Assembly: GCF_017875765.1 (NCBI RefSeq)
Contig: NZ_JAGGNA010000001.1
Location: forward strand, 891,001 to 955,000
Length of the DNA stretch: 64,000 bases
Reading direction: 5' to 3'
Source of the DNA: Flavobacterium sp. CG_23.5
GTDB taxonomy: Bacteria > Bacteroidota > Bacteroidia > Flavobacteriales > Flavobacteriaceae
Position numbers and translations under genes: made by a program. Of this stretch, positions 10,247 through 41,825 are shown piece after piece; the first letter of the stretch is position 1, and every line of letters begins with the position of its first letter. The notes beneath the pieces were generated by a model, which was not told the DNA's origin, did no database searches, and saw only the letters and a list, made by a program, of their open reading frames with translations.

Positions 10247-10291
10247 TGTGATAAATGTTACTGTACGTGGAATTTTAACGTACAATCTTTG
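10247..10291 (+). promoter_or_regulatory. Crp/Fnr-type site and -7 element, tauE copy A promoter
   Basis: TGTGA-TAAATG-TTACT (10247-10262) followed by the -7 element AATCTTTG (10284-10291). The palindrome centre is 36.5 bp before the last G of the -7 element, i.e. about 41 bp before the expected start of transcription, a class II activator position. The same distance holds at six other promoters in the window. Confidence 0.75.
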
Positions 10292-10311
10292 CACCATAAA
10301 ATTTACAACTT

Positions 10312-11100
10312 ATGGAATATATCGGTTATTTTGCGTCAATCCTTATTGGCGTTGCCTTGGGATTAATTGGCGGTGGTGGTAGTATTCTAACAATTCCTAT
10401 ATTAGTTTATCTGTTTCAAGTCAATCCAAAATTAGCGACCACCTACTCCTTATTTGTGGTTGGTTTTACTGCTTCCATTGGTGCGGTCCAACATTATCGC
10501 ATGGGAAATATCAAGTTAAAATCAGCAGTATTATTTGCCATTCCTTCTCTAATTACACTTTTACTAGTTAGAAAAATCATTTTACCATTAGTTCCAGAAA
10601 CATTATTTACTTTTAATGGGTTCCTGCTTACAAAAGATGGTTTTATTATGGCATTATTTGCCGTGCTAATGATCGCTGCTTCTTATTCTATGATTAAAAA
10701 TTCTAAAGAAATTTTTGTCACTTCAGATACAAATCCTTTGAAAGTGGCACTTATTGGAGCGTTGGTGGGAATTGCTACTGGTTTTTTAGGAGCTGGTGGA
10801 GGTTTTTTAATTATTCCTGTCTTACTATTTTTTACAGGTATTACCATGAAACAAGCAGTAGGCACCTCCATATTGATAATTTCTTTCAATTCCTTATTAG
10901 GATTTTTGGGTGATGTTGTAAATGGCGTCACAATAGATTATGAATTTTTAATTCTTGTTACTGCTTTTGCAACTGTAGGTATTTTTATAGGCACACTTCT
11001 TTCTAAAAAAATAGATGGTAATAAACTGAAACCTGCATTTGGCTGGTTTGTTTTAGTGATGGGATTTTATATAATAACCAAAGAGCTTTTTCTAAAATAA
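10312..11100 (+). CDS. TauE/SafE-family sulfite/sulfonate exporter, copy A
   Basis: 262-aa inner-membrane protein of the TauE/SafE (TSUP) family with two homologous halves. Each half has the Gly-rich motif (GLIGGGGSILTIPILVYLF in the first, GFLGAGGGFLIIPVLLFF in the second) and about eight transmembrane segments in all. Members export sulfite, sulfoacetate or related anions. A paralogue of identical length at 40983-41771 also sits directly before a persulfide dioxygenase gene, so sulfite removal after persulfide oxidation is the most natural role. It has its own Crp/Fnr-type promoter; another such promoter separates it from the SQR gene 83 bp downstream. Confidence 0.87.
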   Translation: MEYIGYFASILIGVALGLIGGGGSILTIPILVYLFQVNPKLATTYSLFVVGFTASIGAVQHYRMGNIKLKSAVLFAIPSLITLLLVRKIILPLVPETLFTFNGFLLTKDGFIMALFAVLMIAASYSMIKNSKEIFVTSDTNPLKVALIGALVGIATGFLGAGGGFLIIPVLLFFTGITMKQAVGTSILIISFNSLLGFLGDVVNGVTIDYEFLILVTAFATVGIFIGTLLSKKIDGNKLKPAFGWFVLVMGFYIITKELFLK

Positions 11101-11108
11101 AAACCTTT

Positions 11109-11153
11109 TGTGACATAAGTCACAAGATAAGAATGAAATAAACAGTACTCTTG
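11109..11153 (+). promoter_or_regulatory. Crp/Fnr-type site and -7 element, SQR promoter
   Basis: TGTGA-CATAAG-TCACA (11109-11124), extended to a perfect 18-bp palindrome at 11108-11125, the best site in the window. The -7 element TACTCTTG (11146-11153) has one mismatch to TAnnTTTG, and spacing is again 36.5 bp from centre to last G. Confidence 0.8.
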
Positions 11154-11183
11154 ATAGTTTTATTATTATAAAAAATCTAAAAA

Positions 11184-12458
11184 ATGTCAAACCATTATCA
11201 AATACTTGTCATAGGTGGGGGAAATGCAGGACTTTCTGTCGCTTCAAAATTGCTTCGAAAAAGAAGTGATTTAAAAATTGGAATCATTGATCCTTCTGAA
11301 AAACATTATTATCAACCTGCATGGACACTGGTTGGCGCTGGCATATTTGATATAAATAAGACCGTTCGAAATGAAAAAGAAGTTATTCCAAAAAATACTA
11401 CGTGGATCAAAGAAGCCGTGACTGAATTTACGCCAAAAGAAAACAAAGTAAAATGCCTTTCTGGTAATGAATATACTTACGATTACTTAGTGGTATGTCC
11501 TGGAATTCAATTGGATTGGAATAAAATAGAAGGACTCAAGGACACATTAGGAATAAATAATGTAAGCAGTAACTATTCTTTTCAACACTCTCCATATACT
11601 TGGGAAATGATTGAAAATTTCAAAGGTGGTACAGCGGTTTTCACCAACCCAACTACTCCTATTAAATGCGGAGGAGCACCTCACAAAATTATGTATTTAG
11701 CTTGTGATTATTGGCGTAAACAAGGAATTTTGGATAAATGTGATGTTCATTACATTTCTGGAGCAAACTTGATATTTGGTGTCAAAGAATATGCAGAGAC
11801 ATTAAATAAAGTACTGGCCAAATATAATATTCACGTTCACTATGGAGCTAATGTCACAGCTATACAGGGTCAAAACAAAACGGTGGAATTTGAAATCAAA
11901 GAAATGGATGAAAATCTAAATAAAAAACTATCCTCTGAAAACGCAGGCTGTTATGGTATCGTAGAAAATAGTGAAATGGAAGAACTTAAAAAAGTGACCC
12001 TGAATTTTGATTTATGCCACGCCGTCCCCCCGCAATCCGCTCCTGATTTTATAAAAAATAGCCCTTTGAGAGATATAGAAAACCCATTGGGATATGTAGA
12101 AGTTGACAAAAACACGCTTCAACACACTCGTTTTCCAAATGTATTTGCTCTTGGAGATTGCACCAATGCTCCTTGCAGTAAAACGGGCGCAGCAATTAGA
12201 AAGCAAGCCCCAGTCGTGGTAGAAAATCTTTTGGCTGTTATGGATAATAAAGTTGCAACAGCTCAATATGATGGGTATAGCGCATGTCCTATTCCAACGC
12301 AATACGGAAAATTAATGTTGGCTGAATTTGATTATTCAAATACACCAAAAATGACTTTCCCTTTCAATCAGGCAAAACCAAATTGGGCTATGTGGATTCT
12401 TAAAACTAAGATTTTACCATGGTTGTATTGGAATAAAATACTTAAAGGAACGGCATAA
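11184..12458 (+). CDS. sqr: Sulfide:quinone oxidoreductase, type II-like (mitochondrial SQOR-like)
   Basis: 424-aa FAD flavoprotein that oxidises sulfide and passes electrons to the quinone pool, giving persulfide or polysulfide. The FAD dinucleotide fold is at the N-terminus (VIGGGNAGLSVASKLL, 9-24), followed by HYYQPAWTLVGAG, a motif typical of SQR. Redox cysteine candidates are Cys162 (PIKCGGAPHKIMYLA) and Cys326 (ALGDCTNAPCSKTGAA). These two positions match the two catalytic cysteines of type II enzymes such as human SQOR. CHAVPPQSAP (278-287) is the quinone-side segment. No signal peptide; probably bound to the inner face of the membrane. A flavocytochrome c subunit is less likely because no partner cytochrome is adjacent. 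Confidence 0.88.
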   Translation: MSNHYQILVIGGGNAGLSVASKLLRKRSDLKIGIIDPSEKHYYQPAWTLVGAGIFDINKTVRNEKEVIPKNTTWIKEAVTEFTPKENKVKCLSGNEYTYDYLVVCPGIQLDWNKIEGLKDTLGINNVSSNYSFQHSPYTWEMIENFKGGTAVFTNPTTPIKCGGAPHKIMYLACDYWRKQGILDKCDVHYISGANLIFGVKEYAETLNKVLAKYNIHVHYGANVTAIQGQNKTVEFEIKEMDENLNKKLSSENAGCYGIVENSEMEELKKVTLNFDLCHAVPPQSAPDFIKNSPLRDIENPLGYVEVDKNTLQHTRFPNVFALGDCTNAPCSKTGAAIRKQAPVVVENLLAVMDNKVATAQYDGYSACPIPTQYGKLMLAEFDYSNTPKMTFPFNQAKPNWAMWILKTKILPWLYWNKILKGTA

Positions 12459-12485
12459 TAATCATTACTATTTTTTAAATTATCT

Positions 12486-12519
12486 TCCCTTTCAAATAAA
12501 CTTGAAAGGGATATTTTTA
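12486..12519 (+). terminator. Intrinsic terminator after SQR
   Basis: CCCTTTCAA (12487-12495) pairs with TTGAAAGGG (12502-12510), followed by ATATTTTTAT. It separates the SQR unit from the persulfide dioxygenase unit. Confidence 0.75.
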
Positions 12520-12608
12520 TTAAAATGGTAGCTAAATTAACAACATAGCAATTACACTAAGAACACAAAAATTTATTTTTGGTAAAATAATCAAGTTATA
12601 AAATCCTG

Positions 12609-12653
12609 TGTAACATTAGTCACCAACTTTACCAGAAGTACGCCCTAAATTTG
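12609..12653 (+). promoter_or_regulatory. Crp/Fnr-type site and -7 element, persulfide dioxygenase A promoter
   Basis: TGTAA-CATTAG-TCACC (12609-12624) and a perfect -7 element TAAATTTG (12646-12653), with centre-to-G spacing of 36.5 bp. Confidence 0.75.
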
Positions 12654-12687
12654 TCGAATAAATTAGAAACTTAAAAAAATAAGCGAT

Positions 12688-14088
12688 ATGTATTTTCAAC
12701 ACATTTACGACAAGAGTCTTGCTCAAGCAAGTTATTTTATTGGCTGTCAAAAAGCAGGAGTAGCCGCGGTAATCGATCCTAAAAGGGATGTAGATACCTA
12801 TCTCGAAATTGCTAAACAGAACAATTTGAAAATTACTCATATTTTAGAAACACACATCCATGCTGATTTTCTTGCTGGCTCAAGAGAACTAGCGGCTTTG
12901 ACAGGAGCCGAAATGTACCTTTCAGCGGAAGGCGGACCAGATTGGAAATATGAATTTCCTCATGTTGACATAAAAGATGGTGATGTTTTAAAAGTAGGAA
13001 ACTTAAAAATTGAAGTAGTTCATACTCCTGGACACACTCCGGAAAGTATCAGTTTTCTTTTAACAGATACGCCTGCCAGCGACGAGCCGGTAATGTTATT
13101 CACCGGTGACTTTGTATTTGTTGGTGACATAGGAAGACCTGATTTACTTGAAAAAGCAGCAGGAATGATAGGAACTCAAGACATTGGTGCCAAACAAATG
13201 TATCAATCGATTAATAAATTCGACGCATTACCTGATTATATTCAAGTATGGCCAGGTCATGGAGCAGGTTCTGCATGTGGAAAAGCATTAGGAGCAGTAC
13301 CAAGTACCACTGTAGGATATGAAAAAATAAGAAACTGGGCTTTTCAACATAAAAATGATGAAACTGGATTTGTAAAATATTTATTGGAAGACCAACCGGA
13401 ACCACCAAAATATTTTGCGATGATGAAAAAACTAAATAAAGTTGATCGTCCGCTTCTTACGGCTGTTCCAAAATTGAAAAAACTGGATTACACCGAATTG
13501 ACAGCAGCTTTAGTCAATGGGACTAAATTGATTGATGCCAGAGATAAAACGGAATTTTCTACAGGATTTATTCCAGGAAGTATCAACATTCAAGGGAACA
13601 ATTCTTTTGCCACTTGGGCTGGATGGTTTCTGAGTTATGAAGAACCTTTTATCATTCTTGCCGATGAATCTCAATTGGATGACCTTACCCGAAAACTAAT
13701 GAGAATAGGATTAGATAACATTCAAGGTTACATTCCTTCTACAAAAATATGGGAAGTAAATGGCGGTTCTTTGGAAAAAGTGAATCAGATTTCATTAGAA
13801 GAATTTAAAACTTTAAAACAAGAAAAAGATGTTCAAATCGTTGACCTTCGAGGTGTTGCTGAATACAATACAGGTCACATCAAAGGAGCTGACAATGTAT
13901 TTGTAGGTACTTTAATAAACAATCTGGACAAAATAAGTAAAGATAAAAAAGTATTAATCCATTGCCAAGGCGGGGACAGAGCAGCAATTGCGTATTCTTT
14001 ATTAGCTAGAAATGGCTATAAAAATGTATTCAACTATTCTCCTGGAATGAATGAATGGATTAGCCAAAACAATCCTATTGAATACTAA
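12688..14088 (+). CDS. Persulfide dioxygenase-rhodanese fusion (ETHE1/CstB type), copy A
   Basis: 466-aa protein of three domains. Residues 1-250 form an ETHE1-like metallo-beta-lactamase fold with HIHAD (His56, His58, Asp60), His116 (HTPGH) and Asp141 (GDFVFVGDIGRPDL), an iron site that oxidises glutathione or coenzyme persulfide to sulfite. A first rhodanese domain (about 260-365) lacks the catalytic Cys; a second (about 365-466) has it in HCQGGDRA (Cys426). The combination can make sulfite and combine it with sulfane sulfur to form thiosulfate. It follows SQR, whose persulfide is its expected substrate. The stop is 11 bp from the next rhodanese gene, so they form an operon. A paralogue lies at 41851-43263. 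Confidence 0.9.
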   Translation: MYFQHIYDKSLAQASYFIGCQKAGVAAVIDPKRDVDTYLEIAKQNNLKITHILETHIHADFLAGSRELAALTGAEMYLSAEGGPDWKYEFPHVDIKDGDVLKVGNLKIEVVHTPGHTPESISFLLTDTPASDEPVMLFTGDFVFVGDIGRPDLLEKAAGMIGTQDIGAKQMYQSINKFDALPDYIQVWPGHGAGSACGKALGAVPSTTVGYEKIRNWAFQHKNDETGFVKYLLEDQPEPPKYFAMMKKLNKVDRPLLTAVPKLKKLDYTELTAALVNGTKLIDARDKTEFSTGFIPGSINIQGNNSFATWAGWFLSYEEPFIILADESQLDDLTRKLMRIGLDNIQGYIPSTKIWEVNGGSLEKVNQISLEEFKTLKQEKDVQIVDLRGVAEYNTGHIKGADNVFVGTLINNLDKISKDKKVLIHCQGGDRAAIAYSLLARNGYKNVFNYSPGMNEWISQNNPIEY

Positions 14089-14099
14089 AAATCTCAATT

Positions 14100-14417
14100 A
14101 TGTTCGGAATTTTTAAAAATATGTTTTCAAAAAAAGATACAACGCAAATGGAAAAAATACTAAAAGAAGGTGCGTTCCTCGTAGATGTTCGCACACCAGC
14201 AGAATTTGCTGAAGGTCACGTAAAAGGATCAATCAATATTCCTTTGGATCAAGTACCAAATCAGTTGGCTAAATTTAAAGGAAAAGAGCAAATTATTGTT
14301 TTTTGCCGAAGCGGGAATCGCAGCGGGCAAGCCAAAATGATTTTGGAACAAAATGGTTTTAAAAACGTTACCAATGGCGGTACTTGGCAAGATGTGAACG
14401 AAGCCATAAGCAAATAA
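14100..14417 (+). CDS. Single-domain rhodanese (sulfurtransferase)
   Basis: 105-aa protein with one rhodanese domain. The active-site loop FCRSGNRSG carries Cys69, and the N-terminal LVDVRTPAEFAEGHVKGSINIP is the standard rhodanese/GlpE block. It probably moves sulfane sulfur between SQR, the dioxygenase fusion and an acceptor such as thioredoxin. It lies 11 bp after the dioxygenase gene and is surely co-transcribed. The N-terminus (MFGIFKNMFSKK) is short and weakly hydrophobic, so cytoplasmic location is likely. A long hairpin follows the gene. Confidence 0.9.
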   Translation: MFGIFKNMFSKKDTTQMEKILKEGAFLVDVRTPAEFAEGHVKGSINIPLDQVPNQLAKFKGKEQIIVFCRSGNRSGQAKMILEQNGFKNVTNGGTWQDVNEAISK

Positions 14418-14439
14418 GCAGAGATGTTATTAAAATAAT

Positions 14440-14480
14440 GTGCAGTTTAAAACAAGAAATAAATTTGTTTTAAACTGCAC
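14440..14480 (+). terminator. Long perfect hairpin after the rhodanese gene
   Basis: GTGCAGTTTAAAACAA (14440-14455) and its perfect complement (14465-14480) with a 9-base loop; outer AT-rich bases extend the pairing imperfectly. Only a weak T-run follows, so it could be a terminator, a processing or stability element, or a palindromic insertion. Confidence 0.55.
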
Positions 14481-14557
14481 AATTATTTATCTAAAATCAG
14501 AATTTAATTTTTGTTTCCCTGAAAAGGATTTAAAATTAATAAAAACCTTAATTGAAA

Positions 14558-15766: not shown

Positions 15767-15840
15767 AACAACAAAAAATTAAAAAATCAACATATAATTA
15801 AAATCCTCTCTTGGTAGCATGGATCTAAAATAAATCTAAA

Positions 15841-16410
15841 ATGAATTGGAAAACACCAAAAAAATCTACTATTCAGAATATTGCTTTTATCGTAATTATA
15901 GCATTACTTCTGTTCCCTCCTATAGGCACTTTTGTAAAAGTACAATTGAACCGTCTAATTGCTTTTTCTCCCAAAACAATAGCCGTAACAGATCAAAAAA
16001 TGTTGTCCAGTTACCAATGGAAATTGGTTGATGCTACTGGCAAGATTGTGAACTTGCAGGAATACAAAGGAAAAATCATATTTATTAATTTCTGGGCGAC
16101 ATGGTGTCCGCCATGTATCGCTGAAATGCCAAGCATGCAAAAGTTATACACTGATTATCAGGATAAAATTGTCTTTCTATTTGTCACTAATGATTCCTTT
16201 GAAAAGGCAAATGCGTTTTTAACCAAAGAAAACTTAACGCTTCCAGTCTATCAGTCACTTACAAATTCTCCAGTAGAAATGGAATCATCAACTATTCCGG
16301 CAACCTATCTTATTGATCAGTCAGGAAATGTGATTGTAGCCAAAATTGGCACAGCCAATTGGAATAGTGATTCGTTCAGAGAAAAACTAGATGAATTACT
16401 AAAAAATTAA
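15841..16410 (+). CDS. TlpA-like membrane-anchored thioredoxin
   Basis: 189-aa protein with an N-terminal membrane anchor (about 14-30) and a thioredoxin fold facing the periplasm. The active site is FWATWCPPC with Cys89 and Cys92, the TlpA/ResA type, followed by SSTIPATYLID with the cis-proline segment. Such proteins reduce disulfides in apocytochromes c or in periplasmic sulfur proteins. The TsdA-like cytochrome four genes on needs reduced haem-binding cysteines, so a maturation role is possible; recycling of sulfane sulfur carriers is another. A clear terminator follows 110 bp later. Confidence 0.87.
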   Translation: MNWKTPKKSTIQNIAFIVIIALLLFPPIGTFVKVQLNRLIAFSPKTIAVTDQKMLSSYQWKLVDATGKIVNLQEYKGKIIFINFWATWCPPCIAEMPSMQKLYTDYQDKIVFLFVTNDSFEKANAFLTKENLTLPVYQSLTNSPVEMESSTIPATYLIDQSGNVIVAKIGTANWNSDSFREKLDELLKN

Positions 16411-16657: not shown

Positions 16658-16702
16658 TGTGACAAAAGTAACATAACTACTCATTTATAAATTTAATCTT
16701 TG
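16658..16702 (+). promoter_or_regulatory. Crp/Fnr-type site and -7 element, YeeE/TsdA/SoxB operon promoter
   Basis: TGTGA-CAAAAG-TAACA (16658-16673) and -7 element AATCTTTG (16695-16702), centre-to-G spacing 36.5 bp. It precedes five closely packed genes. Confidence 0.75.
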
Positions 16703-16721: not shown

Positions 16722-17291
16722 ATGGAAATTTTAGAATTAATCAGACAACCTTGGCCATGGTACATTGCAGGCCCATTAGTTGGACTTACTGTTCCTGCTC
16801 TATTAATTATAGGAAATAAATCGTTTGGTATTAGTGCCTCTTTACGTCATACTTGCGCCATGTGCCTACCTGCAAATATTAAATTTTTCAATTACGATTG
16901 GAAAAAAGAAATCTGGAACATGTTTTTCGTATTCGGTATTTTATTTGGTGGTGTGATTGCTTTCAGTTTTTTATCAAATCCAAATCCAATTATTATCAAT
17001 GCGAACCTAAAAACAGAATTAGCTACTTATGGAATTACAGCCATTAATGGCATGTTACCGGAACAATTATTCTCGTGGGAAAATTTATTTACATTAAAAG
17101 GATTGTTTATGATGGTTCTCGGAGGCTTCTTTATAGGTTTCGGTTCTCGCTATGCGGGAGGTTGCACTAGTGGCCACTCTATTTCAGGTTTGTCTAATTT
17201 ACAAATGCCATCTCTGATTGCAACTTGTTGCTTCTTCGTGGGTGGATTAACTATGGCTAATCTCATTTTACCCTTTATCCTTTCACTTTAA
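16722..17291 (+). CDS. YeeE/YedE-family half-transporter 1
   Basis: 189-aa inner-membrane protein of the YeeE/YedE (TsuA) family, whose characterised members carry thiosulfate into the cell by passing it along cysteine pockets. The family motif FIGFGSRYAGGCTSGHSISG (about 139-156) contains the key Cys148; further cysteines are at 45 and 48 (RHTCAMC). It is half the size of a full YeeE; the second half is the next gene, 10 bp downstream. Pairs of half-size proteins like this are common in Bacteroidota and Proteobacteria sulfur clusters. Placed first in an operon with TsdA-like, DsrE and SoxB-like genes, a thiosulfate or sulfur import role is likely. Confidence 0.87.
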   Translation: MEILELIRQPWPWYIAGPLVGLTVPALLIIGNKSFGISASLRHTCAMCLPANIKFFNYDWKKEIWNMFFVFGILFGGVIAFSFLSNPNPIIINANLKTELATYGITAINGMLPEQLFSWENLFTLKGLFMMVLGGFFIGFGSRYAGGCTSGHSISGLSNLQMPSLIATCCFFVGGLTMANLILPFILSL

Positions 17292-17301
17292 AAAATTAAA
17301 T

Positions 17302-17799
17302 ATGCAAATTAAAGATCAAAATACAGATTTCGAAACTCGTTCCTTAGATACGGTTTGTATCAACGACAGTCAATTAGAACACAATTGGTACCATAATTTA
17401 AAATACTTAGTCATCGGTTTATTATTTGGAATTGTTTTCATTAAAGCCGAAATCATCAGTTGGTATCGCATTCAGGAAATGTTTCGTTTTCAATCCTTTC
17501 ATATGTATGGCGTTATAGGAAGTGCCGTTGTTGTTGGGATAATATCCGTTTTTCTGATAAAAAAATTCAATATTAAAACCATTTATGGCGAAAAAATTGA
17601 ATTTCACGACAAAACGTTCAACAAAGGACAAATTTACGGCGGACTCATCTTTGGATTGGGTTGGGCCATAACGGGAGCGTGCCCAGGACCCTTGTTTGCA
17701 CAAATTGGAACTGGTGCCACAGTGATGATTGTTACCCTGTTTTTTGCTATTGTGGGAACTTGGGTTTATGGTTATTTAAGAGACAAACTACCTCATTAA
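17302..17799 (+). CDS. YeeE/YedE-family half-transporter 2 (DUF6691-like)
   Basis: 165-aa partner of the preceding protein. The conserved block GLIFGLGWAITGACPGPLFAQIG carries the family Cys (Cys127). About four transmembrane segments. The first 30 residues are hydrophilic and carry one Cys (VCINDS). Together the two proteins would make one complete YeeE-like channel. Only 10 bp separate it from the first half and 6 bp from the cytochrome gene, so all belong to one operon. Confidence 0.86.
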   Translation: MQIKDQNTDFETRSLDTVCINDSQLEHNWYHNLKYLVIGLLFGIVFIKAEIISWYRIQEMFRFQSFHMYGVIGSAVVVGIISVFLIKKFNIKTIYGEKIEFHDKTFNKGQIYGGLIFGLGWAITGACPGPLFAQIGTGATVMIVTLFFAIVGTWVYGYLRDKLPH

Positions 17800-17805
17800 A
17801 GAAAT

Positions 17806-18903
17806 ATGAATTCAGAAAAACAAAATTTAGTCCAATTTAGATCCCTAGTAAAGAGATTAATCTATCTTTTTACAACTATTATATTCTTAGTAATGGCACT
17901 GTTCATCGTTTTGTTTTTCAATTCATCAATTACCTCTTGGTTTCAAAATAGTGATGCGGATTTCGATTCCCTTTACATTGAAGCAGAAAAAAAGGTGCTT
18001 TTACAAAATGAATTGGCAAAAGTTTGGAAACCTGCTGATATTAGTCTGATTAAAGATGCGAACTTAAAACAAGAAGTAGAATATGGCAAAGATTTAATTG
18101 CACATACGGCTAAATATTTGGGTCCAAATGGTAGTGTGAAACAAATCACCAACGGTATGAATTGCAACAATTGCCATCTGGATGCCGGTACAAAACCTTG
18201 GGGAAATAATTACGGTTCTGTATATTCTATGTACCCAAAAATGAGAGCGCGAAGCGGGCAAGTGGAAAACCTTTATAAAAGGGTAAATGATTGCATGGAA
18301 AGAAGTTTAAATGGTCAGCCTCTCAAAGAAGGCGACAAAGAAATGAAAGCCATGATTGCCTACATAGAATATATAGGCAGTAATGTTCCTAAAGGTAAAG
18401 AAGCAAATGCTTCTGGAATTTATGATCTAGAATATTTAAATCGAGCTGCTGATCCTGTAAAAGGAAAGGCATTATATGATTCAAAATGTGCCAGTTGTCA
18501 TCAAGTGAATGGTCAGGGAATTTTGGCAGAAGATAAAAAGGAATATACGTATCCGCCACTTTGGGGTAAAAATTCGTATAATAGTGGTGCCGGTTTATTT
18601 AGAATTAGTCGTTTTGCAGGGTATATAAAATACAACATGCCATTAGGTACAACCTATGAAAACCCGCAATTATCAGATGAAGAGTCTTGGGATATTGCAG
18701 CTTATGTAGAAAGTCTGGACAGACCATCGAAAGATTTAAGTCAGGATTGGCCAAAAATTGCCAAGAAACCAGTAGATCATCCATTTGGGCCTTATTCCGA
18801 TAAATATACCGAAATACAACACAAATATGGACCATTTAAACCTATAAAAAAGGAAAAAAAGAAAATGGAAGAAGCAGAGGTAAAATTAAAATCTAAAACA
18901 TAA
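17806..18903 (+). CDS. TsdA-like dihaem cytochrome c (candidate thiosulfate dehydrogenase), membrane-anchored
   Basis: 365-aa c-type cytochrome with an N-terminal transmembrane anchor (about 17-38). Two haem motifs are present: CNNCH (120-124, followed by LDAG) and CASCH (228-232). The segment YPKMRARSGQ...RVNDCMERSLNG is the TsdA hallmark; its Cys163 matches the unusual cysteine axial ligand of haem 1 in TsdA. Methionine in YNMPLG (about 278) is a candidate haem 2 ligand. TsdA joins two thiosulfates into tetrathionate, or does the reverse. Classical TsdA is soluble in the periplasm; the anchor and the Lys-rich tail (PIKKEKKK) here differ. Middle gene of the YeeE-SoxB operon. Confidence 0.82.
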   Translation: MNSEKQNLVQFRSLVKRLIYLFTTIIFLVMALFIVLFFNSSITSWFQNSDADFDSLYIEAEKKVLLQNELAKVWKPADISLIKDANLKQEVEYGKDLIAHTAKYLGPNGSVKQITNGMNCNNCHLDAGTKPWGNNYGSVYSMYPKMRARSGQVENLYKRVNDCMERSLNGQPLKEGDKEMKAMIAYIEYIGSNVPKGKEANASGIYDLEYLNRAADPVKGKALYDSKCASCHQVNGQGILAEDKKEYTYPPLWGKNSYNSGAGLFRISRFAGYIKYNMPLGTTYENPQLSDEESWDIAAYVESLDRPSKDLSQDWPKIAKKPVDHPFGPYSDKYTEIQHKYGPFKPIKKEKKKMEEAEVKLKSKT

Positions 18904-18909
18904 AAACAA

Positions 18910-19335
18910 ATGAAAAATTTAAAACTAATAACTCTAATTCTAATTGGATTATTTACCGTTAGTACTTTTGCTCAAAAAAGACCGAATAAGCACAAAGTAG
19001 TATTTCAGTTTACCAATGCCAATGATACTTTACAACAAAAAGCATTTGCAAACCAACTAAAAAATTTAACAGACCATTGGCCTAATGCAAAATATGAAGT
19101 GGTGGTTTACAATATGGGATTAGAATTTGTTATGGCAACAAAATCAAAGCATATCGCAGCAATTAGAGCACTTCATGCAAAAGGAGTTCGCTTTGTAGTT
19201 TGCGAAAACACCATGAAAAATCGAAAAATAACTAAAGAACAACTGATCCCTGAAGTAGAATATGTACCCGCCGGAATTGCTGAAATTGTTGAAAAACAAG
19301 AACAAGGTTGGAGTTATATTAAGGGCGGATTCTAA
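18910..19335 (+). CDS. Exported DsrE-family sulfur-relay protein
   Basis: 141-aa protein with a signal peptide (cleavage after about residue 21, ...TFAQ) and a DsrE/DsrF-like fold (HKVVFQFTNAND, YEVVVYNMGLEFV). The conserved Cys is in VRFVVCENTMK (Cys98). Family members bind sulfane sulfur on this Cys and hand it on. Export to the periplasm distinguishes it from cytoplasmic DsrE/TusD and matches periplasmic sulfur chemistry by its TsdA-like and SoxB-like neighbours. It starts 6 bp after the cytochrome gene. It might serve as the sulfur carrier that SoxYZ provides in Sox systems, which is missing here (inference). Confidence 0.82.
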   Translation: MKNLKLITLILIGLFTVSTFAQKRPNKHKVVFQFTNANDTLQQKAFANQLKNLTDHWPNAKYEVVVYNMGLEFVMATKSKHIAAIRALHAKGVRFVVCENTMKNRKITKEQLIPEVEYVPAGIAEIVEKQEQGWSYIKGGF

Positions 19336-19436
19336 ATTAAAATTGTAAATTATATTTTGCACAATCCTACACCATTAATTTGGCTGTAGGTTTTCCTGCA
19401 AAAACGCTAAAAACTAAACCAACAAACCTAAAAAAA

Positions 19437-21131
19437 ATGAGTAATAACCGAAGAGATTTTCTGAAATCAGTGGGGACATTAGGTCTGGGTGCTGCGATTA
19501 TTTCGCCTATTTCAGCTATTTCAAATACAAATCAGACTGAAGAAATAAACTTGGATGCAGCAATCGATAGCACAAAACCTCAAACGATTTCCATTCTTCA
19601 AACCACCGATGTCCACTGTCAGATTCATCCACATGATGAGTTGTTTTGGGAAAACGGTAAAATGGTTTTTAGAAAGACGGGTGGCTATGCCTATATGGCA
19701 ACTCTACTGAAACAATTAAAAAAGAAAAACCCAAACACCTATATAATCGACACGGGCGATATGTTTCAAGGCAGCGAATTAAGCGTAGAAACTACCGGTG
19801 AAGCTTTTGTTCCCATTTTAAATGCATTGAATTACGACTTATATCTTCCGGGAAATTGGGAAGTAATTTACGGAAAAAGAAAAATGCAAACACTATTGGG
19901 TTCTCTTGATGCACCAAAAATTTGCACCAATATGTACCACGATTTAGGCGAAGGAAAACGAGGTGAACTTATTTTTCAGCCGTATACCATTTGGCATATC
20001 GCCGGAGCAAAAATTGGTTTTTTAGGTTACACTGATCCTTTAGTACCCTTAAGACAAAGCCCCAATTACAGCAAGGGAATTCTGTACACTAATCCCGAAG
20101 AAAATCTGGCTCATTATGTGGATGTACTAAGAAATCAGGAACAATGCAGTTATGTAATTATAATTGCGCATCTTGGTTTATCACAGCAAATAGCATTGGC
20201 AAACCGACCGGAATGTGAAGGTGTAAACTACATTTTGGGTGGCGACACGCACGAGAGAGTTCGTAAACCCATTGTTTGCAACTATTCTAAAGTGGTGGAA
20301 CCGGGAGCTTTTGGTTCGTTTATTGGAAAATTAGATTTGACTATTCTCAACGGAAAAGTGGTTGAGGATAAGTATGAATTAATAGAGGTTGATTCTCCAA
20401 AAATAAAACCAGATCCTAAAATTGAAAAATTATTAAAAGACACAGAAGCTGTTTATCAAGAAAAAATCAATCAGGTTATTGGATACAGCACGATTCCTTT
20501 GTACCGTTATTTTGTGGTAGAAAATCCTATTGACACGATGATTTTGAATGCTCTAAACTGGAAATTCCCTGAAATAGACATTAATCTTTCTAATGGATTC
20601 CGCTTTTGTCCGCCAAAAACTACACCGGATAATACCGGAAACATTCCCATCACAAATGGATTTATTTTCGACATGTTACCAGTTGACAGTACCGTAAGAA
20701 CCGCAAAAGTAACCGGAAAGCAATTGAAAAACTGGCTCGAAAAAGAACTGAATAATGTTTTTGCGCAAGACGCTTCCAAACGTTTTGGCGGTTGGGTCGT
20801 AAAATTCAAAGGAATGGAGGTTCGCTTCAATGCTTTTGCAGAAATGGACAAAAGAGTGCAAAGTATTACCGTAAAAAATATTCCGATAGATTCTGAAAAA
20901 CGATATACAATCATGGCTTGTGAACGCGATGGCGATCCTGTGGATATGCTTTGCAGAATGAAAGGCGTAATGGATGCCAAAAACACAAACTCAACCTTGC
21001 ATACGGTAATGAGAGAATATCTAAAACAAAATTCTCCAGTTACGCCTACACCGCAAAAAAACGCCATAATTCTGGATGCTCCTGAAACCCTTTTAACGCA
21101 AGTTACTGGTGTTGATTATACGTTTAGATAG
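19437..21131 (+). CDS. soxB: SoxB-like metallohydrolase of the 5'-nucleotidase family, Tat-exported
   Basis: About 564-aa exported protein. The Tat signal NNRRDFLKSVG at the N-terminus fixes the ATG at 19437; the in-frame TTG at 19380 is upstream of it. A calcineurin-like metallophosphatase domain follows (TTDVHCQ with Asp58 and His60, DTGDMFQGS with Asp105/Asp108, AHLGL, GGDTHER), then a 5'-nucleotidase C-terminal domain. Instead of the GNHE motif of nucleotidases it has GNWE (139-142), as in SoxB, the thiosulfohydrolase that removes sulfate from SoxY-bound thiosulfate. No soxYZ, soxXA or soxCD is in the window, so its carrier would have to be different. A nucleotidase activity cannot be excluded. 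Last gene of the operon. Confidence 0.75.
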   Translation: MSNNRRDFLKSVGTLGLGAAIISPISAISNTNQTEEINLDAAIDSTKPQTISILQTTDVHCQIHPHDELFWENGKMVFRKTGGYAYMATLLKQLKKKNPNTYIIDTGDMFQGSELSVETTGEAFVPILNALNYDLYLPGNWEVIYGKRKMQTLLGSLDAPKICTNMYHDLGEGKRGELIFQPYTIWHIAGAKIGFLGYTDPLVPLRQSPNYSKGILYTNPEENLAHYVDVLRNQEQCSYVIIIAHLGLSQQIALANRPECEGVNYILGGDTHERVRKPIVCNYSKVVEPGAFGSFIGKLDLTILNGKVVEDKYELIEVDSPKIKPDPKIEKLLKDTEAVYQEKINQVIGYSTIPLYRYFVVENPIDTMILNALNWKFPEIDINLSNGFRFCPPKTTPDNTGNIPITNGFIFDMLPVDSTVRTAKVTGKQLKNWLEKELNNVFAQDASKRFGGWVVKFKGMEVRFNAFAEMDKRVQSITVKNIPIDSEKRYTIMACERDGDPVDMLCRMKGVMDAKNTNSTLHTVMREYLKQNSPVTPTPQKNAIILDAPETLLTQVTGVDYTFR

Positions 21132-21203: not shown

Positions 21204-21248
21204 TGTGATAAAAGTTACTTCCCATTTGTAATGATGGGAGTATTTTTG
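21204..21248 (+). promoter_or_regulatory. Crp/Fnr-type site and -7 element, porin promoter
   Basis: TGTGA-TAAAAG-TTACT (21204-21219) and a perfect -7 element TATTTTTG (21241-21248), spacing 36.5 bp. It follows the preceding terminator directly. Confidence 0.75.
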
Positions 21249-21270: not shown

Positions 21271-22701
21271 ATGAAAAAGTTTTCCACTATAATTTATATA
21301 CTTACCTCCCTACTTTTTGCTATAAATATAAGAGCGCAACATCAGGAAATTTCAGATAAACCAACCGTTTGGAAAGAAAAAAGTAACGAAAAAATTGATT
21401 CCACATCGATTTTAAATGCTTTCAAAAACGGAAATTTCAGCGGCCATTTTCGCTATTTTTTTATGGGCACCAATAATGAAAAGGGCTTATCTGATTATTA
21501 TGCGAATGCCCTTGGCGGAGGCGTAAAATTTGAAACCGCTAAATTTCATAATTTTCAATTTGGTGTGAGCGGCTACTATATTTTTAATATTGGTTCCTCT
21601 AATTTTACTGAAAAAGATTCCATTACCAATGCACCCAATCGATACGAAGTGGCACTTTTTGATATTCAAAACCCATCAAACGAAGACAATCTAAGTCGGT
21701 TAGAAGAATTATATTTGAAATACAATTATAAAAATTCGACTATAACCCTTGGAAAACAACTGCTCAATACTTCCTTTATAAACCTACAGGACGGGAGAAT
21801 GCGTCCTACAGAAGTGAATGGAATTTGGGTGGATTTTAATGAAATAAAAAAAACTAAAATCAATCTGGGTTACCTCTACGGAATCTCACCACGAAGCACA
21901 CTGAACTATTTTGAAGTGGGAAAATCAATAGGAATCTATCCAACTGGAGTAAATCCTGATGGAACAAAATCTGATTATGCGGGGAATATAAATAGCAATG
22001 GAATTTTTATCATTGGCATACAAAACGAATCGATACAGCATCTAAAAACACTTTTGTGGAACCAATATGCGGATAATTTATTCAATTCGGCATTGTTCCA
22101 AATGGATTATACATACCCCATAAATTCAAACTCAAAACTGATTTTTGGATTTCAGACGATATATCAAAATGCGTTGAATTTTGGCGGAAATGAAGATCCA
22201 AGCAAAACTTATTTTCAAAAAAATGGCAACTCACAAACTTTTGGAGGAAGATTCGGCTGGAAAAACAACACACTGGAATTGACTTTAAACTACAACCGAA
22301 TAACGGCAAAAGGAAGATATTTAATGCCTCGAGAATGGGGACGTGATCCGTTTTACACCTTTATGGCCAGAGAACGAAATGAAGGTTTTGGCGATGTACA
22401 TGCGGTAATGACTAAAATACAATATACAAATCCTAAAAAGACATTCAAATCTCATCTAGCAGTGGGCTATTTTGATTTGCCGGATGTTAAAAACTTTGAA
22501 TTAAATAAATATGGATTGCCTTCCTATGTGCAGACAAATGCTGACATTCGATATCAATTTCAAGGATTCTTAAAAGGTTTTGATGCGCAACTATTGTATG
22601 TACAGAAATTTAATGTGGGTAAAACTTACGGCAATAAGAATTATGTTTTCAATAAAACTAACATGAGTAATCTCAACTTTATACTCAATTTTAATTTTTA
22701 A
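21271..22701 (+). CDS. Outer-membrane porin (OprD-like beta-barrel)
   Basis: 476-aa protein with a signal peptide (first about 22 residues, ...NIRAQ) and alternating beta-strand pattern ending in the aromatic strand LNFILNFNF, typical of outer-membrane barrels. Internal features such as NGNFSGHFRYFFMGT near the N-terminus, ITLGKQLL and PTEVNGIWV resemble OprD/porin families for small anions or organic acids. It has its own Crp/Fnr-type promoter, so it is probably the outer-membrane entry for the sulfur substrate used by the island. Substrate is inferred. The stop codon is 14 bp from the rhtA-like 3' remnant that ends the island. Confidence 0.78.
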   Translation: MKKFSTIIYILTSLLFAINIRAQHQEISDKPTVWKEKSNEKIDSTSILNAFKNGNFSGHFRYFFMGTNNEKGLSDYYANALGGGVKFETAKFHNFQFGVSGYYIFNIGSSNFTEKDSITNAPNRYEVALFDIQNPSNEDNLSRLEELYLKYNYKNSTITLGKQLLNTSFINLQDGRMRPTEVNGIWVDFNEIKKTKINLGYLYGISPRSTLNYFEVGKSIGIYPTGVNPDGTKSDYAGNINSNGIFIIGIQNESIQHLKTLLWNQYADNLFNSALFQMDYTYPINSNSKLIFGFQTIYQNALNFGGNEDPSKTYFQKNGNSQTFGGRFGWKNNTLELTLNYNRITAKGRYLMPREWGRDPFYTFMARERNEGFGDVHAVMTKIQYTNPKKTFKSHLAVGYFDLPDVKNFELNKYGLPSYVQTNADIRYQFQGFLKGFDAQLLYVQKFNVGKTYGNKNYVFNKTNMSNLNFILNFNF

Positions 22702-35782: not shown

Positions 35783-35808
35783 CGCTATACATTATATTCT
35801 TAATTCAT

Positions 35809-35848
35809 AAAAAAACCGCCTTGTTTTACTATAACGAGGCGGTTTTTA
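35809..35848. terminator. Bidirectional terminator
   Basis: AAAAAACCGCCTTGTT and AACGAGGCGGTTTTT form a long stem flanked by A and T runs, so it can serve both converging genes. Confidence 0.85.
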
Positions 35849-35892
35849 TCATTCATATTACGTCAAACCAATTATCGACTTTATATCATCAA

Positions 35893-37776: not shown

Positions 37777-37933
37777 AGCCGCGGAATTTCAAATATAAAT
37801 GTTAGTAATAAAGTATTAGTAGCAATAAATTCCATTTTGTAACACAATCATCTTGAATAAAAAATTTAGTTATTCTCCAATCTTAAATTTGTGGGCTTCC
37901 AAAAAATTAGAGGAACTGCGCATTTTGAAACAT

Positions 37934-37972
37934 AAAAAAACCGTCTCGTTATAATAAACGAGACGGTTTTTG
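37934..37972. terminator. Bidirectional terminator after the GapN-type gene
   Basis: AAAACCGTCTCGTT and AACGAGACGGTTTT with a short loop, flanked by A and T runs. It ends the gene at 37992-39572 before the M1 peptidase promoter. Confidence 0.85.
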
Positions 37973-37991
37973 ATTTTCGAATAAAACTCAA

Positions 37992-39572
37992 TTACAATAT
38001 GTAATCCGTAGTTATAAAATTTGACTGATCACTATTCAATAAAGCCTGTAAAATTGCATTATTATATTCATTGTCTTTTGAAGCTACGAAAGTTCTAATA
38101 GAGAACGAGCGCAAAGCGTCATGAATACTCAATGTTCCCACAGCGGAGTCCTTACGACCTGTAAAAGGGTAAATATCTGGGCCTCTTTGACAAGAACTAT
38201 TAAGATTGACACGGCAAACTAGATTTACTAATGTGTCGATAAGCGGTGCAATTGTTTTGATATCTTTTCCAAACAAACTTACTTGCTGTCCGTAATTAGA
38301 CTCTGCCATATCGTTTAATGGCTCTTGTATATCTTTGAAAGTTAAAACAGGCACTACGGGTCCGAATTGTTCTTCATGATACACCCGCATTTCCTTATTT
38401 ATGGGATATAAAACGGCTGGAAAAATATAATTTGGGGAATGTTCCCCTCCTTTTTCATTGATTACCTTCGCTCCTTTTGCAATAGCATCATCAATCAATT
38501 CTTGGATATAAGCTGGTTTTTCTTTCTCCGGTAAAGGCGTTAAAGAAACTGCTTTATCCCAAGGATTCCCAAAAACTAGCGCATCAACTTTGGCAGCGAA
38601 ACGTTTATTAAATTCTTCCGCTATAGATTCGTGCACATATAAAATTTTCAGGGCGGTGCAACGCTGTCCGTTGAAAGATAAAGTTCCGGCAATACATTCT
38701 TGAATGGCCAAATCTAAATCGGCGTCCGGTAATATTATCGCAGGGTTTTTGGCTTCCAAGCCTAAAATTAATCGCAATCTGTTTTTATTTGGGTGCTGAT
38801 CCTGCAAAGCAATCGCTGATTTACTATTTCCTATCAATGCCAAAACAGCCACTTTTCCTGATTTCATAATAGGCGAAGCCACCTCTCTACCTCTACCGTA
38901 CACAATATTTATAACACCCGCTGGAAAACTGTTTCTGAAAGCTTCCAATAAAGGCGAAATTAATAAAACTCCATGTTTTGCGGGTTTAAATACTACTGTA
39001 TTTCCCATAATTAGAGCAGGGATTAATAAGGCGAAGGTTTCGTTTAGCGGATAATTGTATGGTCCAAGACACAACACAACTCCTAGTGGTCCGCGACGTA
39101 CCATTGCATTTACGCCTTGGCTCTTTGTAAAACGGGCACTGTTTCGATCCAGTTGTTTGTAATCTTCAATTGTATCATAGATGTATTCTACGGTCCTGTC
39201 AAACTCTTTTTGGGAATCGGGCAATGTTTTTCCTATTTCCCACATCAAGAACTTCACTACTTCTTCACGGGTCGCTTCCATTTGAGTAACAAAACGTTTC
39301 ATGCATTTGATACGGTCCGCGACTTTCATGGTAGGCCATAATCCTTGACCATTATTGTAGGCAGCATACGCAGCATCAACCGCTTCTACTCCTTCTACTT
39401 CTCCCATAAAAGGAATCGACCCTAAGATGGTTGGATCATATTTTTCTGTGGAGGAAATCGTAGAAAATACGGGAGTTGTCTGCCCTTCCCATTTTTTTAA
39501 TTCACCATTTACTAAATAAGTATCTTGGTTTAATAAGGTCTTTATCTGAAATTCTTCTGGTATTGAATTCAT
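37992..39572 (-). CDS. NADP-dependent glyceraldehyde-3-phosphate dehydrogenase-type aldehyde dehydrogenase (GapN-like)
   Basis: 526-aa member of the aldehyde dehydrogenase superfamily. The cofactor region is [37 protein letters not shown]; the general base Glu is in [12 protein letters not shown]; the catalytic Cys305 is in [11 protein letters not shown], the form found in GapN. GapN oxidises glyceraldehyde-3-phosphate directly to 3-phosphoglycerate, making NADPH and bypassing ATP formation. Substrate choice between this and another aldehyde is inferred. A rhodanese gene lies 63 bp upstream on the same strand and may be co-transcribed. Confidence 0.83.
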
Positions 39573-39635
39573 TTTTGGTTGTTTTTGTTTTTTGGTATTT
39601 TAAGGTCCGAAAAGAAGTTATTGCCTTGTTCGGTT

Positions 39636-39947
39636 TTATGGAGAAACGATATCTCCGTTCCAAGCCAAAATTCCTCCCGTTAAATTATAGGCGTTTTCAA
39701 TGCCTAATTCATTCATAATTTCACAGGCTTTTGCACTTCTTGCTCCAGAACGACAATAAACATAATAGTTTTTACTTTTATCTAATGCGTCTATTTCGGA
39801 AACAAAAACGGGTCCTTGATGAATATCAATATTTATCGCATTGGATATAATTCCGTCATTGTATTCGTCCTCAGTTCTTACGTCTAGTATTACTGCATTC
39901 TCATCTGCTTCGAGCTGAGAAATCCAATCTTCTTGTGTTAAATTCAT
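39636..39947 (-). CDS. Single-domain rhodanese
   Basis: 103-aa rhodanese protein. VILDVRTEDEYNDGIISNAINIDI and the active loop YVYCRSGARSAKA (Cys about 77) are typical. No signal peptide. It is the third free-standing or fused rhodanese group in the window, but it is not next to a Crp/Fnr site and lies with the GapN-type gene, so a link to sulfide oxidation is not shown. Confidence 0.87.
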   Translation of the reverse strand: MNLTQEDWISQLEADENAVILDVRTEDEYNDGIISNAINIDIHQGPVFVSEIDALDKSKNYYVYCRSGARSAKACEIMNELGIENAYNLTGGILAWNGDIVSP

Positions 39948-40276
39948 GATGATGTTTTTTGTAAAAATACAACGTTTTTAAATAACTATAAACGGTCCCC
40001 TTCTAAATTATATTATATTTCACAGAAAACGTTTTAGTTAAACATTAATAATCAGCAAATTATATTTTTGTTTACGAAATTATTAACATTTAGTCCATTA
40101 AATCCATAGGAAATACATTTATATCTAACCTTGAATTTTGTTTTACATCCACATTTTCAATTAAATAGTTCCCCTGAATTATTAACTTTTTAGCTTACTT
40201 TTACACTACTTATCTTGATTTTTTTCAAAATAACGGTTCTTTTTTAACTAGATATATTTTAAAAAAACACTTCGCA
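39948..40276. other. Divergent intergenic region before the Crp/Fnr gene
   Basis: 329 AT-rich bases. No TGTGA-N6-TCACA site is visible here, so the regulator gene does not seem to be controlled by its own type of site. Confidence 0.35.
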
Positions 40277-40909
40277 ATGCATGATTCTGACGATTTAAAA
40301 AAAATATTTCCATCGTTTTCAGACGAGCTTATTAACGACATTGAAACTAACGCTGTTAGACACTCATATAAAGCGGGAGATATCATCATGCGCACAGGCC
40401 AGTATATAAACAATACACTTTTGATTATTAAAGGTCAAATTAAGATTTATCGGGAAGGAGAAAATGGAGGTGAGTTTTTCATGTATTATTTGCAGCCGGG
40501 ACAAGCTTGTGCGGTTTCTATGATTTGTGCGAATAAAAATCAAACAAGCCAAATTATGGCAAAGGTGGTTGAGGATGTTGAGCTAATTATGATCCCGCTT
40601 TCCTTGATGGAAAAGTGGATGATGGCGCATCGCAGTTGGTATGAATTTGTAATCTTTACGTATCGAACTCGATTTGAAGAAGTCTTGGAAGTTGTTGATA
40701 GTATTGCATTTCGAGCCATGGACGAACGATTAGAATTTTATTTAAAACGTCACGCTGAGGCTTGTGGTTGTAAAGAGTTAAAATTATCGCATCAAGAAAT
40801 TGCCACTGAACTCAATACTTCCAGAGAAGTAATTTCCCGCTTGCTTAAAAAGATGGAACAACGAGGTTTAGTTCGATTATACCGCAATAATATTGAACTT
40901 TTGACCTAA
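40277..40909 (+). CDS. Crp/Fnr-family transcription activator, likely regulator of both sulfur loci
   Basis: 210-aa protein with an N-terminal cyclic-nucleotide-binding-type beta-roll (about 20-115) and a C-terminal winged helix. The recognition helix TSREVISRLLKK has Arg183, Glu184 and Arg188 in the same places as Arg, Glu and Arg in E. coli CRP (RETVGR), which read TGTGA. Seven TGTGA-like palindromes lie before sulfur genes in this window; the nearest is 12 bp after this gene's stop. Cysteines 78, 84, 163 and 165 (ACAVSMIC, EACGC) are candidates for sensing oxidants or persulfide. No FNR-type four-cysteine N-terminus. Role as sulfur regulator is inference from sites and position. Confidence 0.87.
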   Translation: MHDSDDLKKIFPSFSDELINDIETNAVRHSYKAGDIIMRTGQYINNTLLIIKGQIKIYREGENGGEFFMYYLQPGQACAVSMICANKNQTSQIMAKVVEDVELIMIPLSLMEKWMMAHRSWYEFVIFTYRTRFEEVLEVVDSIAFRAMDERLEFYLKRHAEACGCKELKLSHQEIATELNTSREVISRLLKKMEQRGLVRLYRNNIELLT

Positions 40910-40920
40910 AAAATGTTCAA

Positions 40921-40965
40921 TGTGACATATGTTACTGTTTGTAAATTAGATACAAGCGACCTTTG
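40921..40965 (+). promoter_or_regulatory. Crp/Fnr-type site and -7 element, tauE copy B promoter
   Basis: TGTGA-CATATG-TTACT (40921-40936) and -7 element GACCTTTG (40958-40965), centre-to-G spacing 36.5 bp. It starts 12 bp after the regulator gene. Confidence 0.75.
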
Positions 40966-40982
40966 CAATAAAAAATTTAAAG

Positions 40983-41771
40983 ATGGAATATTTAGGTTAT
41001 TTTGCTTCAATTATTATCGGACTTTCCCTAGGTTTAATAGGAGGTGGCGGATCCATTCTTACCATACCGATTTTAGTCTATTTATTTAAAATAGAACCCG
41101 AATTAGCCACAAGCTATTCTTTATTTATAGTGGGAATTACTGCTTTATTTGGTTGTATAAGCCATTATAAAATGGGGAATCTTAAAATAAAATCAGCACT
41201 ATATTTCGCCATTCCTTCCGTATTTTCTATTTTGATAATTCGGGAAGTTATTTTTCCAAAAATAGCATCTACACTTTTCTCCATTGCTTCTTATCAAGTT
41301 TCAAAAAGTTTCTTGATAATGATTGTTTTTTCTGTACTTATGATGGCAGCGGCGATATCGATGATACGGAAAAGAAAATCAATCCCGAATCCTCCAAAAA
41401 CAAATTACACACAACTAGGAGTAATTGGATTTATAGTGGGAATTGTAACTGGATTTTTGGGTGCTGGTGGTGGGTTTCTAATCATACCCGCACTATTATT
41501 TTTCGCTAATTTACCAATGAAACAAGCAGTTGGAACCTCATTACTAATTATATTTATAAATTCAAGTATCGGTTTTGCAGGCGATTTATATATTGGCACA
41601 CCCATTAATTATTCGTTTTTACTTGTGATTTCGAGTATTGCTTTTGTCGGAATGATAATTGGAATCCAGCTTTCAAAAAAAATTGATGGGGCTAAACTTA
41701 AACCCATTTTTGGTTGGTTTATATTAGTCATGGGAATATATATTATTGCCAAGGAAATCTTCTTTAAATAA
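40983..41771 (+). CDS. TauE/SafE-family exporter, copy B
   Basis: 262-aa paralogue of the exporter at 10312-11100, the same length and closely similar throughout (MEYLGYFASIIIGLSLGLIGGGG at the start, GFLGAGGGFLIIPALLFF in the second half). Likely exports sulfite made by the next gene. Presence of a paralogous pair tauE plus dioxygenase in both loci suggests an old duplication of the module. It has its own Crp/Fnr-type promoter. Confidence 0.87.
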   Translation: MEYLGYFASIIIGLSLGLIGGGGSILTIPILVYLFKIEPELATSYSLFIVGITALFGCISHYKMGNLKIKSALYFAIPSVFSILIIREVIFPKIASTLFSIASYQVSKSFLIMIVFSVLMMAAAISMIRKRKSIPNPPKTNYTQLGVIGFIVGIVTGFLGAGGGFLIIPALLFFANLPMKQAVGTSLLIIFINSSIGFAGDLYIGTPINYSFLLVISSIAFVGMIIGIQLSKKIDGAKLKPIFGWFILVMGIYIIAKEIFFK

Positions 41772-41780
41772 AATACATTG

Positions 41781-41825
41781 TGTAACAATAGTCACAGTTA
41801 AATTGAAATTCAAGAATTACCTTTG
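41781..41825 (+). promoter_or_regulatory. Crp/Fnr-type site and -7 element, persulfide dioxygenase B promoter
   Basis: TGTAA-CAATAG-TCACA (41781-41796) and a perfect -7 element TACCTTTG (41818-41825), spacing 36.5 bp. It argues for the ATG at 41851 as the start of the next gene, as an upstream in-frame TTG at 41746 precedes the promoter. Confidence 0.78.

What the first reader, a model, noticed from the sequence alone, without database searches (positions are those of the whole stretch)
10247..41825. Seven sulfur-gene promoters share one Crp/Fnr palindrome at an identical 36.5-bp distance from the -7 element
Sites at 10247, 11109, 12609, 16658, 21204, 40921 and 41781 all fit TGT[GA]A-N6-T[CTA]AC. 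In every case the centre lies exactly 36.5 bp before the last G of a TAnnTTTG-like element, about 41 bp before the expected transcript start. This is class II activation geometry, with no need for a -33 TTG. The Crp/Fnr gene at 40277 has a CRP-like recognition helix (SREVISR) that should read TGTGA. Together this defines a candidate sulfide-responsive regulon spanning two loci 18 kb apart.
Basis: partly seen in the sequence, partly recalled or inferred. Interest (0 to 1): 0.85.

Follow-up and report, generated by a model that had tools for sequence, protein, structure and literature searches.

The report
Crp-type switch for sulfide-detoxification genes
A Flavobacterium carries an identical, precisely placed docking site for one Crp-type regulator in front of its predicted sulfide, persulfide and thiosulfate genes, and the same arrangement recurs across the phylum Bacteroidota, so a previously unnamed sulfur-gene switch can now be tested directly.

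Summary
All seven sites exist, and in each the last G of the -7 box lies exactly 44 bases after the site start. The shared motif is tighter than reported (TGTRAYANNNGTHAC). Flavobacterial sigmaA boxes lie at -12 to -5 (PMC9723704), so the palindrome centre is at -41.5, the canonical class II position.

The genome adds two promoters with this geometry: a rhodanese pair and a second YeeE/YedE pair. In 299 Flavobacterium genomes motif plus exact spacing gives 442 hits; the reversed-pattern control gives 7. Hits track the window's Crp (126 of 136 genomes) or a more distant homologue (75 of 115), and are rare without either (5 of 48). An FNR paralogue does not explain them.

The recognition-helix residue equivalent to CRP Glu181 is Glu in the window's type and Val in the sister type; operators covary (a G half-site in 99 of 115 sites against 5 of 34), with exceptions. 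The arrangement extends through Bacteroidota.

Best reading: an unnamed Crp/Fnr activator of sulfide/persulfide/thiosulfate genes. Sensing through an invariant Cys78 in the effector loop is inferred; ligand, binding and induction are untested. The open-paper searches showed no description.

The parts
10247..10262 (+). operator 1, TGTGATAAATGTTACT, before TauE1
   Evidence: centre 36.5 bp before last G of -7 box
10284..10291 (+). -7 element AATCTTTG
10312..11100 (+). TauE/SafE permease 1
   Evidence: Pfam PF01925
11109..11124 (+). operator 2, TGTGACATAAGTCACA, before SQR
11146..11153 (+). -7 element TACTCTTG
11184..12458 (+). sulfide:quinone reductase, type III-like
   Evidence: Pfam; NCBIfam NF049943 249.6 bits, below its cut-off of 525
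12609..12624 (+). operator 3, TGTAACATTAGTCACC, before PDO1
12646..12653 (+). -7 element TAAATTTG
12688..14088 (+). MBL-fold plus rhodanese protein, persulfide-dioxygenase type (PDO1); followed by rhodanese 14100-14417
   Evidence: Pfam PF00753 and PF00581; enzyme activity inferred
16658..16673 (+). operator 4, TGTGACAAAAGTAACA, before the YeeE/cytochrome c/DsrE/SoxB-like genes
16695..16702 (+). -7 element AATCTTTG
16722..21131 (+). probable operon: YeeE1 (TsuA-like), YeeE2, SoxA/TsdA-type cytochrome c, DsrE, SoxB-like thiosulfohydrolase
   Evidence: Pfam; NCBIfam (matches below cut-offs)
21204..21219 (+). operator 5, TGTGATAAAAGTTACT, before an OprD-type porin
21241..21248 (+). -7 element TATTTTTG
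21271..22701 (+). OprD-family porin
   Evidence: Pfam PF03573
40277..40909 (+). Crp/Fnr activator; recognition helix SREVISR, Cys78-x-x-S-x-x-Cys84 in the effector loop
40921..40936 (+). operator 6, TGTGACATATGTTACT, between the regulator and TauE2
40958..40965 (+). -7 element GACCTTTG
40983..41771 (+). TauE/SafE permease 2
   Evidence: Pfam
41781..41796 (+). operator 7, TGTAACAATAGTCACA, before PDO2
41818..41825 (+). -7 element TACCTTTG
41851..43263 (+). MBL-fold plus rhodanese protein, persulfide-dioxygenase type (PDO2)
   Evidence: Pfam; activity inferred

Best explanation
The Crp/Fnr protein at 40277 is the dedicated activator of a sulfide/persulfide/thiosulfate regulon. As a dimer it binds the palindrome TGTRAYA-N3-GTHAC centred at -41.5 and activates sigmaA polymerase in class II fashion, at promoters with an -11A/TTTG -7 box and no regular -33 TTG. 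In this genome it controls at least nine promoters (seven here, a rhodanese pair, a second YeeE/YedE pair). Shown by sequence: sites, spacing, conservation, co-occurrence, helix/operator covariation. Inferred: binding, activation, and that the protein is switched on by a sulfur species (persulfide or polysulfide) reacting with invariant Cys78, with Cys84 as partner in most members, in the loop where relatives bind their effector.
For: Exact spacing in the own genome. In 80 loci chosen by Crp homology, 103 of 124 tight sites have TTTG ending at +44, next commonest offset 6; of 133 loose sites with TTG there, 129 precede homologues of the window's target genes. A at -11 is 140 of 140 although not selected for, while the spacer is weakly conserved. 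299 genus genomes: 442 hits (summed) against 7 for the control (counted by eye). Co-occurrence 126 of 136, 75 of 115, 5 of 48. Phylum draw: 52 of 143 genomes with a family member against 4 of 252 without (counted by hand, tested in 75). Covariation: Glu184 in 120 of 120 window-type proteins, Val in 8 of 8 sister-type loci; sites with a G half 99 of 115 against 5 of 34 (150 retyped of 442 hits, one row from a genome with neither type dropped); before the same efflux gene 5 of 6 against 0 of 11 (hand count; tested in 68). Cys78 in 120 of 120, 120 of 120 and 22 of 22 sequences. Sigma box at -12 to -5.
Against: No binding, expression or ligand data. Ten of 136 genomes with the window-type Crp have no exact hit; five of 48 without either type have one. 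Some hits precede an RND pump, the FNR gene, or (by eye) cytochromes and cydA; of 13 loci outside the genus returned, six have no recognised target. Covariation has exceptions: V-helix loci L199 and L204 have two-mismatch PDO2 sites with G halves, and V-helix L259 an exact PDO2 site with one. Cys84 is missing in 5 of 22 phylum members. Genomes are related, so Fisher values overstate independence. The model loop with the cysteines has low confidence.
Confidence: 0.78

Rival explanations
1. The sites are read by the genome's FNR-type paralogue (N-terminal cysteines, L031), so this is an oxygen/NO regulon and the neighbouring Crp is incidental.
For: The FNR paralogue is in 272 of 299 genomes. In two genomes its own gene has the motif at the exact spacing (L125, L136); by eye one cydA-like and four cytochrome-c-like genes do too.
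Against: Genomes with FNR but neither Crp type: 4 of 33 have hits; genomes with window-type Crp but no FNR: 4 of 5 (7 of the 27 FNR-negative genomes were inferred from their absence in the table). FNR's helix has Thr where the Crp has Arg183, and G/A covariation follows the Crp types.
Confidence: 0.08
2. The Crp reads the sites and activates, but the signal is not sulfide/persulfide (for example NO, oxygen, cyanide or a small ligand).
For: No ligand data. Targets in other species include efflux and, by eye, respiration genes. HcpR of Porphyromonas is one of many fold relatives.
Against: In this genome eight of the nine matching promoters precede sulfur-type genes and the ninth an OprD porin; Cys78 is invariant and aligns to the NtcA effector loop (role of the loop recalled).
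Confidence: 0.25
3. Chance or inherited similarity of promoters in one gene cluster.
For: The loose motif alone is not enriched genome-wide.
Against: Motif plus spacing 442 against 7; hits at two unlinked places of the own genome; spacer weakly conserved while ends and length are fixed.
Confidence: 0.01

Closest known systems
E. coli CRP (CAP) at class II promoters
   Same: TGTGA half-sites, Arg/Glu/Arg helix residues, centre at -41.5, fold
   Different: far below the CRP equivalog cut-off; cysteines in the effector loop; Bacteroidota -7 box; sulfur regulon
Persulfide regulators CstR (CsoR), SqrR/BigR (ArsR), FisR, as described in PMC9774590 (passages)
   Same: control sulfide/persulfide genes; cysteine sensing (only proposed here)
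   Different: other protein families; CstR and SqrR/BigR are repressors; FisR acts with sigma54
HcpR of Porphyromonas gingivalis and FNR
   Same: Crp/Fnr fold; HcpR structure 9day
   Different: NO/oxygen sensing (recalled); the own-genome FNR has another helix
3dv8, unnamed Crp/Fnr protein of Eubacterium rectale
   Same: closest solved sequence and top fold match, shares C-x-L-S-x-x-C
   Different: its entry gives no function; distant (26%)

Membership tests
Crp/Fnr transcription factors | cNMP-binding domain plus Crp-type HTH | tested here: met
   PF00027 and PF13545 above cut-offs; fold matches
Crp/Fnr, CRP-type recognition | Arg-Glu-x3-Arg in the recognition helix and TGTGA half-sites | tested here: met
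   SREVISR, R183/E184 in 120 of 120; sites. Binding itself not tested
cAMP-responsive CRP | CRP equivalog score | tested here: not met
   NF008732 46.2 bits against cut-off 266; cAMP-contact residues were not aligned directly
FNR oxygen sensor | N-terminal Cys cluster | tested here: not met
   Cys only at 78, 84, 163, 165
Class II activator-dependent promoter | operator centred near -41.5 | tested here: met
   36.5 bp to last G, box at -12 to -5 from the paper; transcript starts not mapped in this genome
Class II activator-dependent promoter | activator dependence and contacts with polymerase | not testable with these tools
   needs in vitro transcription
Persulfide/sulfane-sulfur sensor | reactive cysteine whose modification changes DNA binding | not testable with these tools
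   invariant Cys78 only
Sulfide-oxidation regulon | SQR, persulfide-dioxygenase, rhodanese and thiosulfate-type genes share the operator | tested here: met
   by domain, activities not tested

The most novel reading that the evidence does not exclude
A phylum-wide subfamily of Crp/Fnr activators whose cyclic-nucleotide pocket has become a persulfide sensor (Cys78), working at -41.5, with a natural Glu-to-Val switch of the recognition helix matched by a G-to-A change in its operators, and with operator polarity fixed by gene (strong half upstream for TauE, downstream for PDO2).
Probability: 0.4. Interest if true: 0.75.

Novelty: new variant of a known kind. Interest (0 to 1): 0.6.

Why it matters
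No paper listed (titles and abstract starts; only the first 20 of 36 and of 58) describes how Bacteroidota control sulfide and persulfide oxidation. A regulator, exact operators, a predicted transcript start and a predicted sensing cysteine make it directly testable. Sister regulators with Glu or Val in the helix give a natural experiment in how an activator and its operators evolve together.

Tried and rejected
Loose motif alone: not enriched genome-wide, so the claim rests on the tighter motif plus spacing. FNR as reader: rejected by the cross-table. Autoregulation of the window-type Crp: none of the 140 sites was assigned to the Crp gene; the sister type has one-mismatch sites before its own gene in 3 of 8 loci (L198, L201, L202). 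An RND-pump OEP gene with this operator in relatives has only 22-26% identical matches in the own genome, so it is not claimed here; the regions upstream of those matches were not examined. Structure: the cysteine loop (80-87) has pLDDT under 50, so no Cys-Cys distance is claimed. Paper searches for a known Bacteroidota sulfur Crp, for class II Crp in Bacteroidetes (first 20 of 58) and for the CAP Glu181 specificity work gave nothing direct; the classical Glu181 mutants are recalled, not read.
Full report
What is there. The window is part of a 3.67-Mb, one-contig genome whose nearest named relatives are Flavobacterium. All seven sites are present, and in all seven the last G of the -7-like box is 44 bases after the site start. 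Eight of the 11 have the exact spacing: the seven plus one before two rhodanese genes. A ninth promoter, with one motif mismatch (TGTAACATTTCTCAC) and a perfect TATATTTG, precedes a second YeeE/YedE pair. With the loose motif, offset 44 holds 10 own-genome hits and no other offset from 29 to 59 more than 4; two of the ten are antisense inside ORFs.

Why -41.5. In F. psychrophilum the sigmaA box TAnnTTTG was mapped at -12 to -5 (PMC9723704, passages seen). The palindrome centre, 36.5 bp before the last G, is therefore at -41.5. In 140 sites (7 window, 133 from 80 loci) selected only for the loose operator and a TTG at +42 to +44, A at -11 is 140 of 140 and T at -8 is 0.96, while positions of the 21-base spacer carry at most 0.67 bits. 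No TTG starts at offsets 9-17 (9-14 are excluded by the operator itself), but T (0.70) and G (0.59) at -34/-33 and TTG at -31 in 14 of 140 hint at a degenerate element.

Conservation. In 80 loci (the best 80 of 513, chosen by Crp homology, 79 titled Flavobacterium, so biased to this neighbourhood) 103 of 124 tight sites have TTTG ending at exactly +44. Of 133 sites with TTG there, in 76 of the 80 loci, 129 precede homologues of the window's target genes: PDO2 58, TauE 52, OprD 7, SQR 4, YeeE1 3, TlpA 2, PDO1 2, rhodanese 1; four precede other genes. A check not tied to the Crp locus, one hit from each of 30 genomes (30 of 442), gave TauE 10, PDO 6, YeeE 3, an outer-membrane efflux gene 6, the FNR gene 2, and by eye cytochrome c 1 and a small Cys-rich protein 1; one had no ORF near. 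The efflux label rests on one Pfam-tested member and shared N-termini.

Who reads it. In 299 genus genomes motif plus spacing gives 442 hits in 206 genomes; the reversed control gives 7 (counted by eye). Genomes with the window-type Crp (best E at most 1e-80): 126 of 136 have hits, mean 2.31; with only a more distant homologue (E 1e-80 to 1e-30; those listed are 42-44% identical): 75 of 115, mean 1.06; with neither: 5 of 48, mean 0.12. FNR alone does not suffice (4 of 33) and is not needed (4 of 5). In a phylum-wide draw, 52 of 143 genomes with a family member at E at most 1e-25 have a hit, against 4 of 252 without. Of the 13 loci outside the genus that one search returned (L274-L286), seven have a recognised target (PDO 4, TauE 1, efflux 1, thioredoxin 1) and six none. 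In 8 of 12 regions fetched because a hit lay near a Crp gene, the site starts within 60 bp of the end of that gene, as in the window (regulator ends 40909, site 40921).

Specificity covariation. The window-type helix is SREVISR; the eight sister-type loci fetched in the genus have SRVVISR or SRVVVSR. Glu184 is kept in 120 of 120 window-type homologues; Val in 119 of 120 sister-type ones, but these are 98-100% identical to one query and add little. Glu184 corresponds to CRP Glu181, which with Arg180 is required for DNA binding (PMC4868304 passages; correspondence by motif). Sites with at least one G at the matching half-site position: 99 of 115 in window-type genomes, 5 of 34 in sister-type genomes (150 of 442 hits, one row dropped; the helix was not checked genome by genome). 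Before the same efflux gene it is 5 of 6 against 0 of 11 (hand count). Outside the genus, the eight E-helix loci with +44 sites at up to two mismatches (L247, L249, L250, L254, L255, L257, L258, L263) all have a G half; among V-helix loci L264 and L266 (which also holds an E-helix paralogue) have none, L260 has none at its two exact sites but two at a two-mismatch one, and L259 has one. Within the genus, V-helix L199 and L204 have two-mismatch PDO2 sites with G halves. So the trend is strong, not absolute. That CAP Glu181 mutants lose G preference at this base is recalled, not read. In TauE promoters the upstream half has G in 54 of 54; in PDO2 promoters only the downstream half has it in 57 of 59.

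Sensing, inferred. The protein is Crp/Fnr by domain and fold but matches no NCBIfam equivalog above cut-off. It has no N-terminal cysteines; its cysteines are 78, 84, 163 and 165. Cys78 is invariant in 120 of 120, 120 of 120 and 22 of 22 sequences (the last set is the window's own protein plus 21 from 20 loci); Cys84 in 119 of 120, 120 of 120 and 17 of 22. In the NtcA alignment Cys78 falls in the effector loop (role of that loop recalled). Reactive-sulfur regulators in the passages seen of PMC9774590 are CsoR-, ArsR- and Fis/sigma54-type; none there is Crp/Fnr. Sulfur sensing by Cys78 is the most economical proposal, but no ligand was tested.

Limits. Genomes are related and some incomplete, so p-values are indicative. 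Binding, activation and signal are not shown. The regulon varies: in other species it seems to include an RND pump (L270: OEP, adaptor, permease) and, in some, FNR and perhaps cytochromes or cydA.

Noticed in passing
L207, L270, L271, L273 and other loci: An OEP-adaptor-RND efflux operon carries the same operator and spacing in many Flavobacterium species; the window's genome has only distant OEP relatives (22-26%). Its substrate is unknown.
   Followed up: partly
L125 and L136 (genomes G188, G040): The FNR-type paralogue's own gene has the operator at the exact spacing, suggesting a cascade from the sulfur regulator to FNR or shared recognition.
   Followed up: partly
L188, L123, L189, L192, L194: By eye, a cydA-like gene and cytochrome c genes with a HCYLCHSP motif follow the operator in sister-type genomes.
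   Followed up: no
L307, L309-L312: Outside the genus, a small protein beginning MKKNMG, MKKNIG, MKKNMS or MKVNMG follows the Crp gene and operator; it looks like a YgaP-type membrane segment (by eye).
   Followed up: no
TauE and PDO2 promoters in the window and L034-L113: Operator polarity is gene-specific: G in the upstream half for TauE (54 of 54), only in the downstream half for PDO2 (57 of 59), conserved across species.
   Followed up: partly
window 10917-10932 and 11739-11754: Two motif-like palindromes inside coding sequence without the spacing; probably decoys.
   Followed up: no
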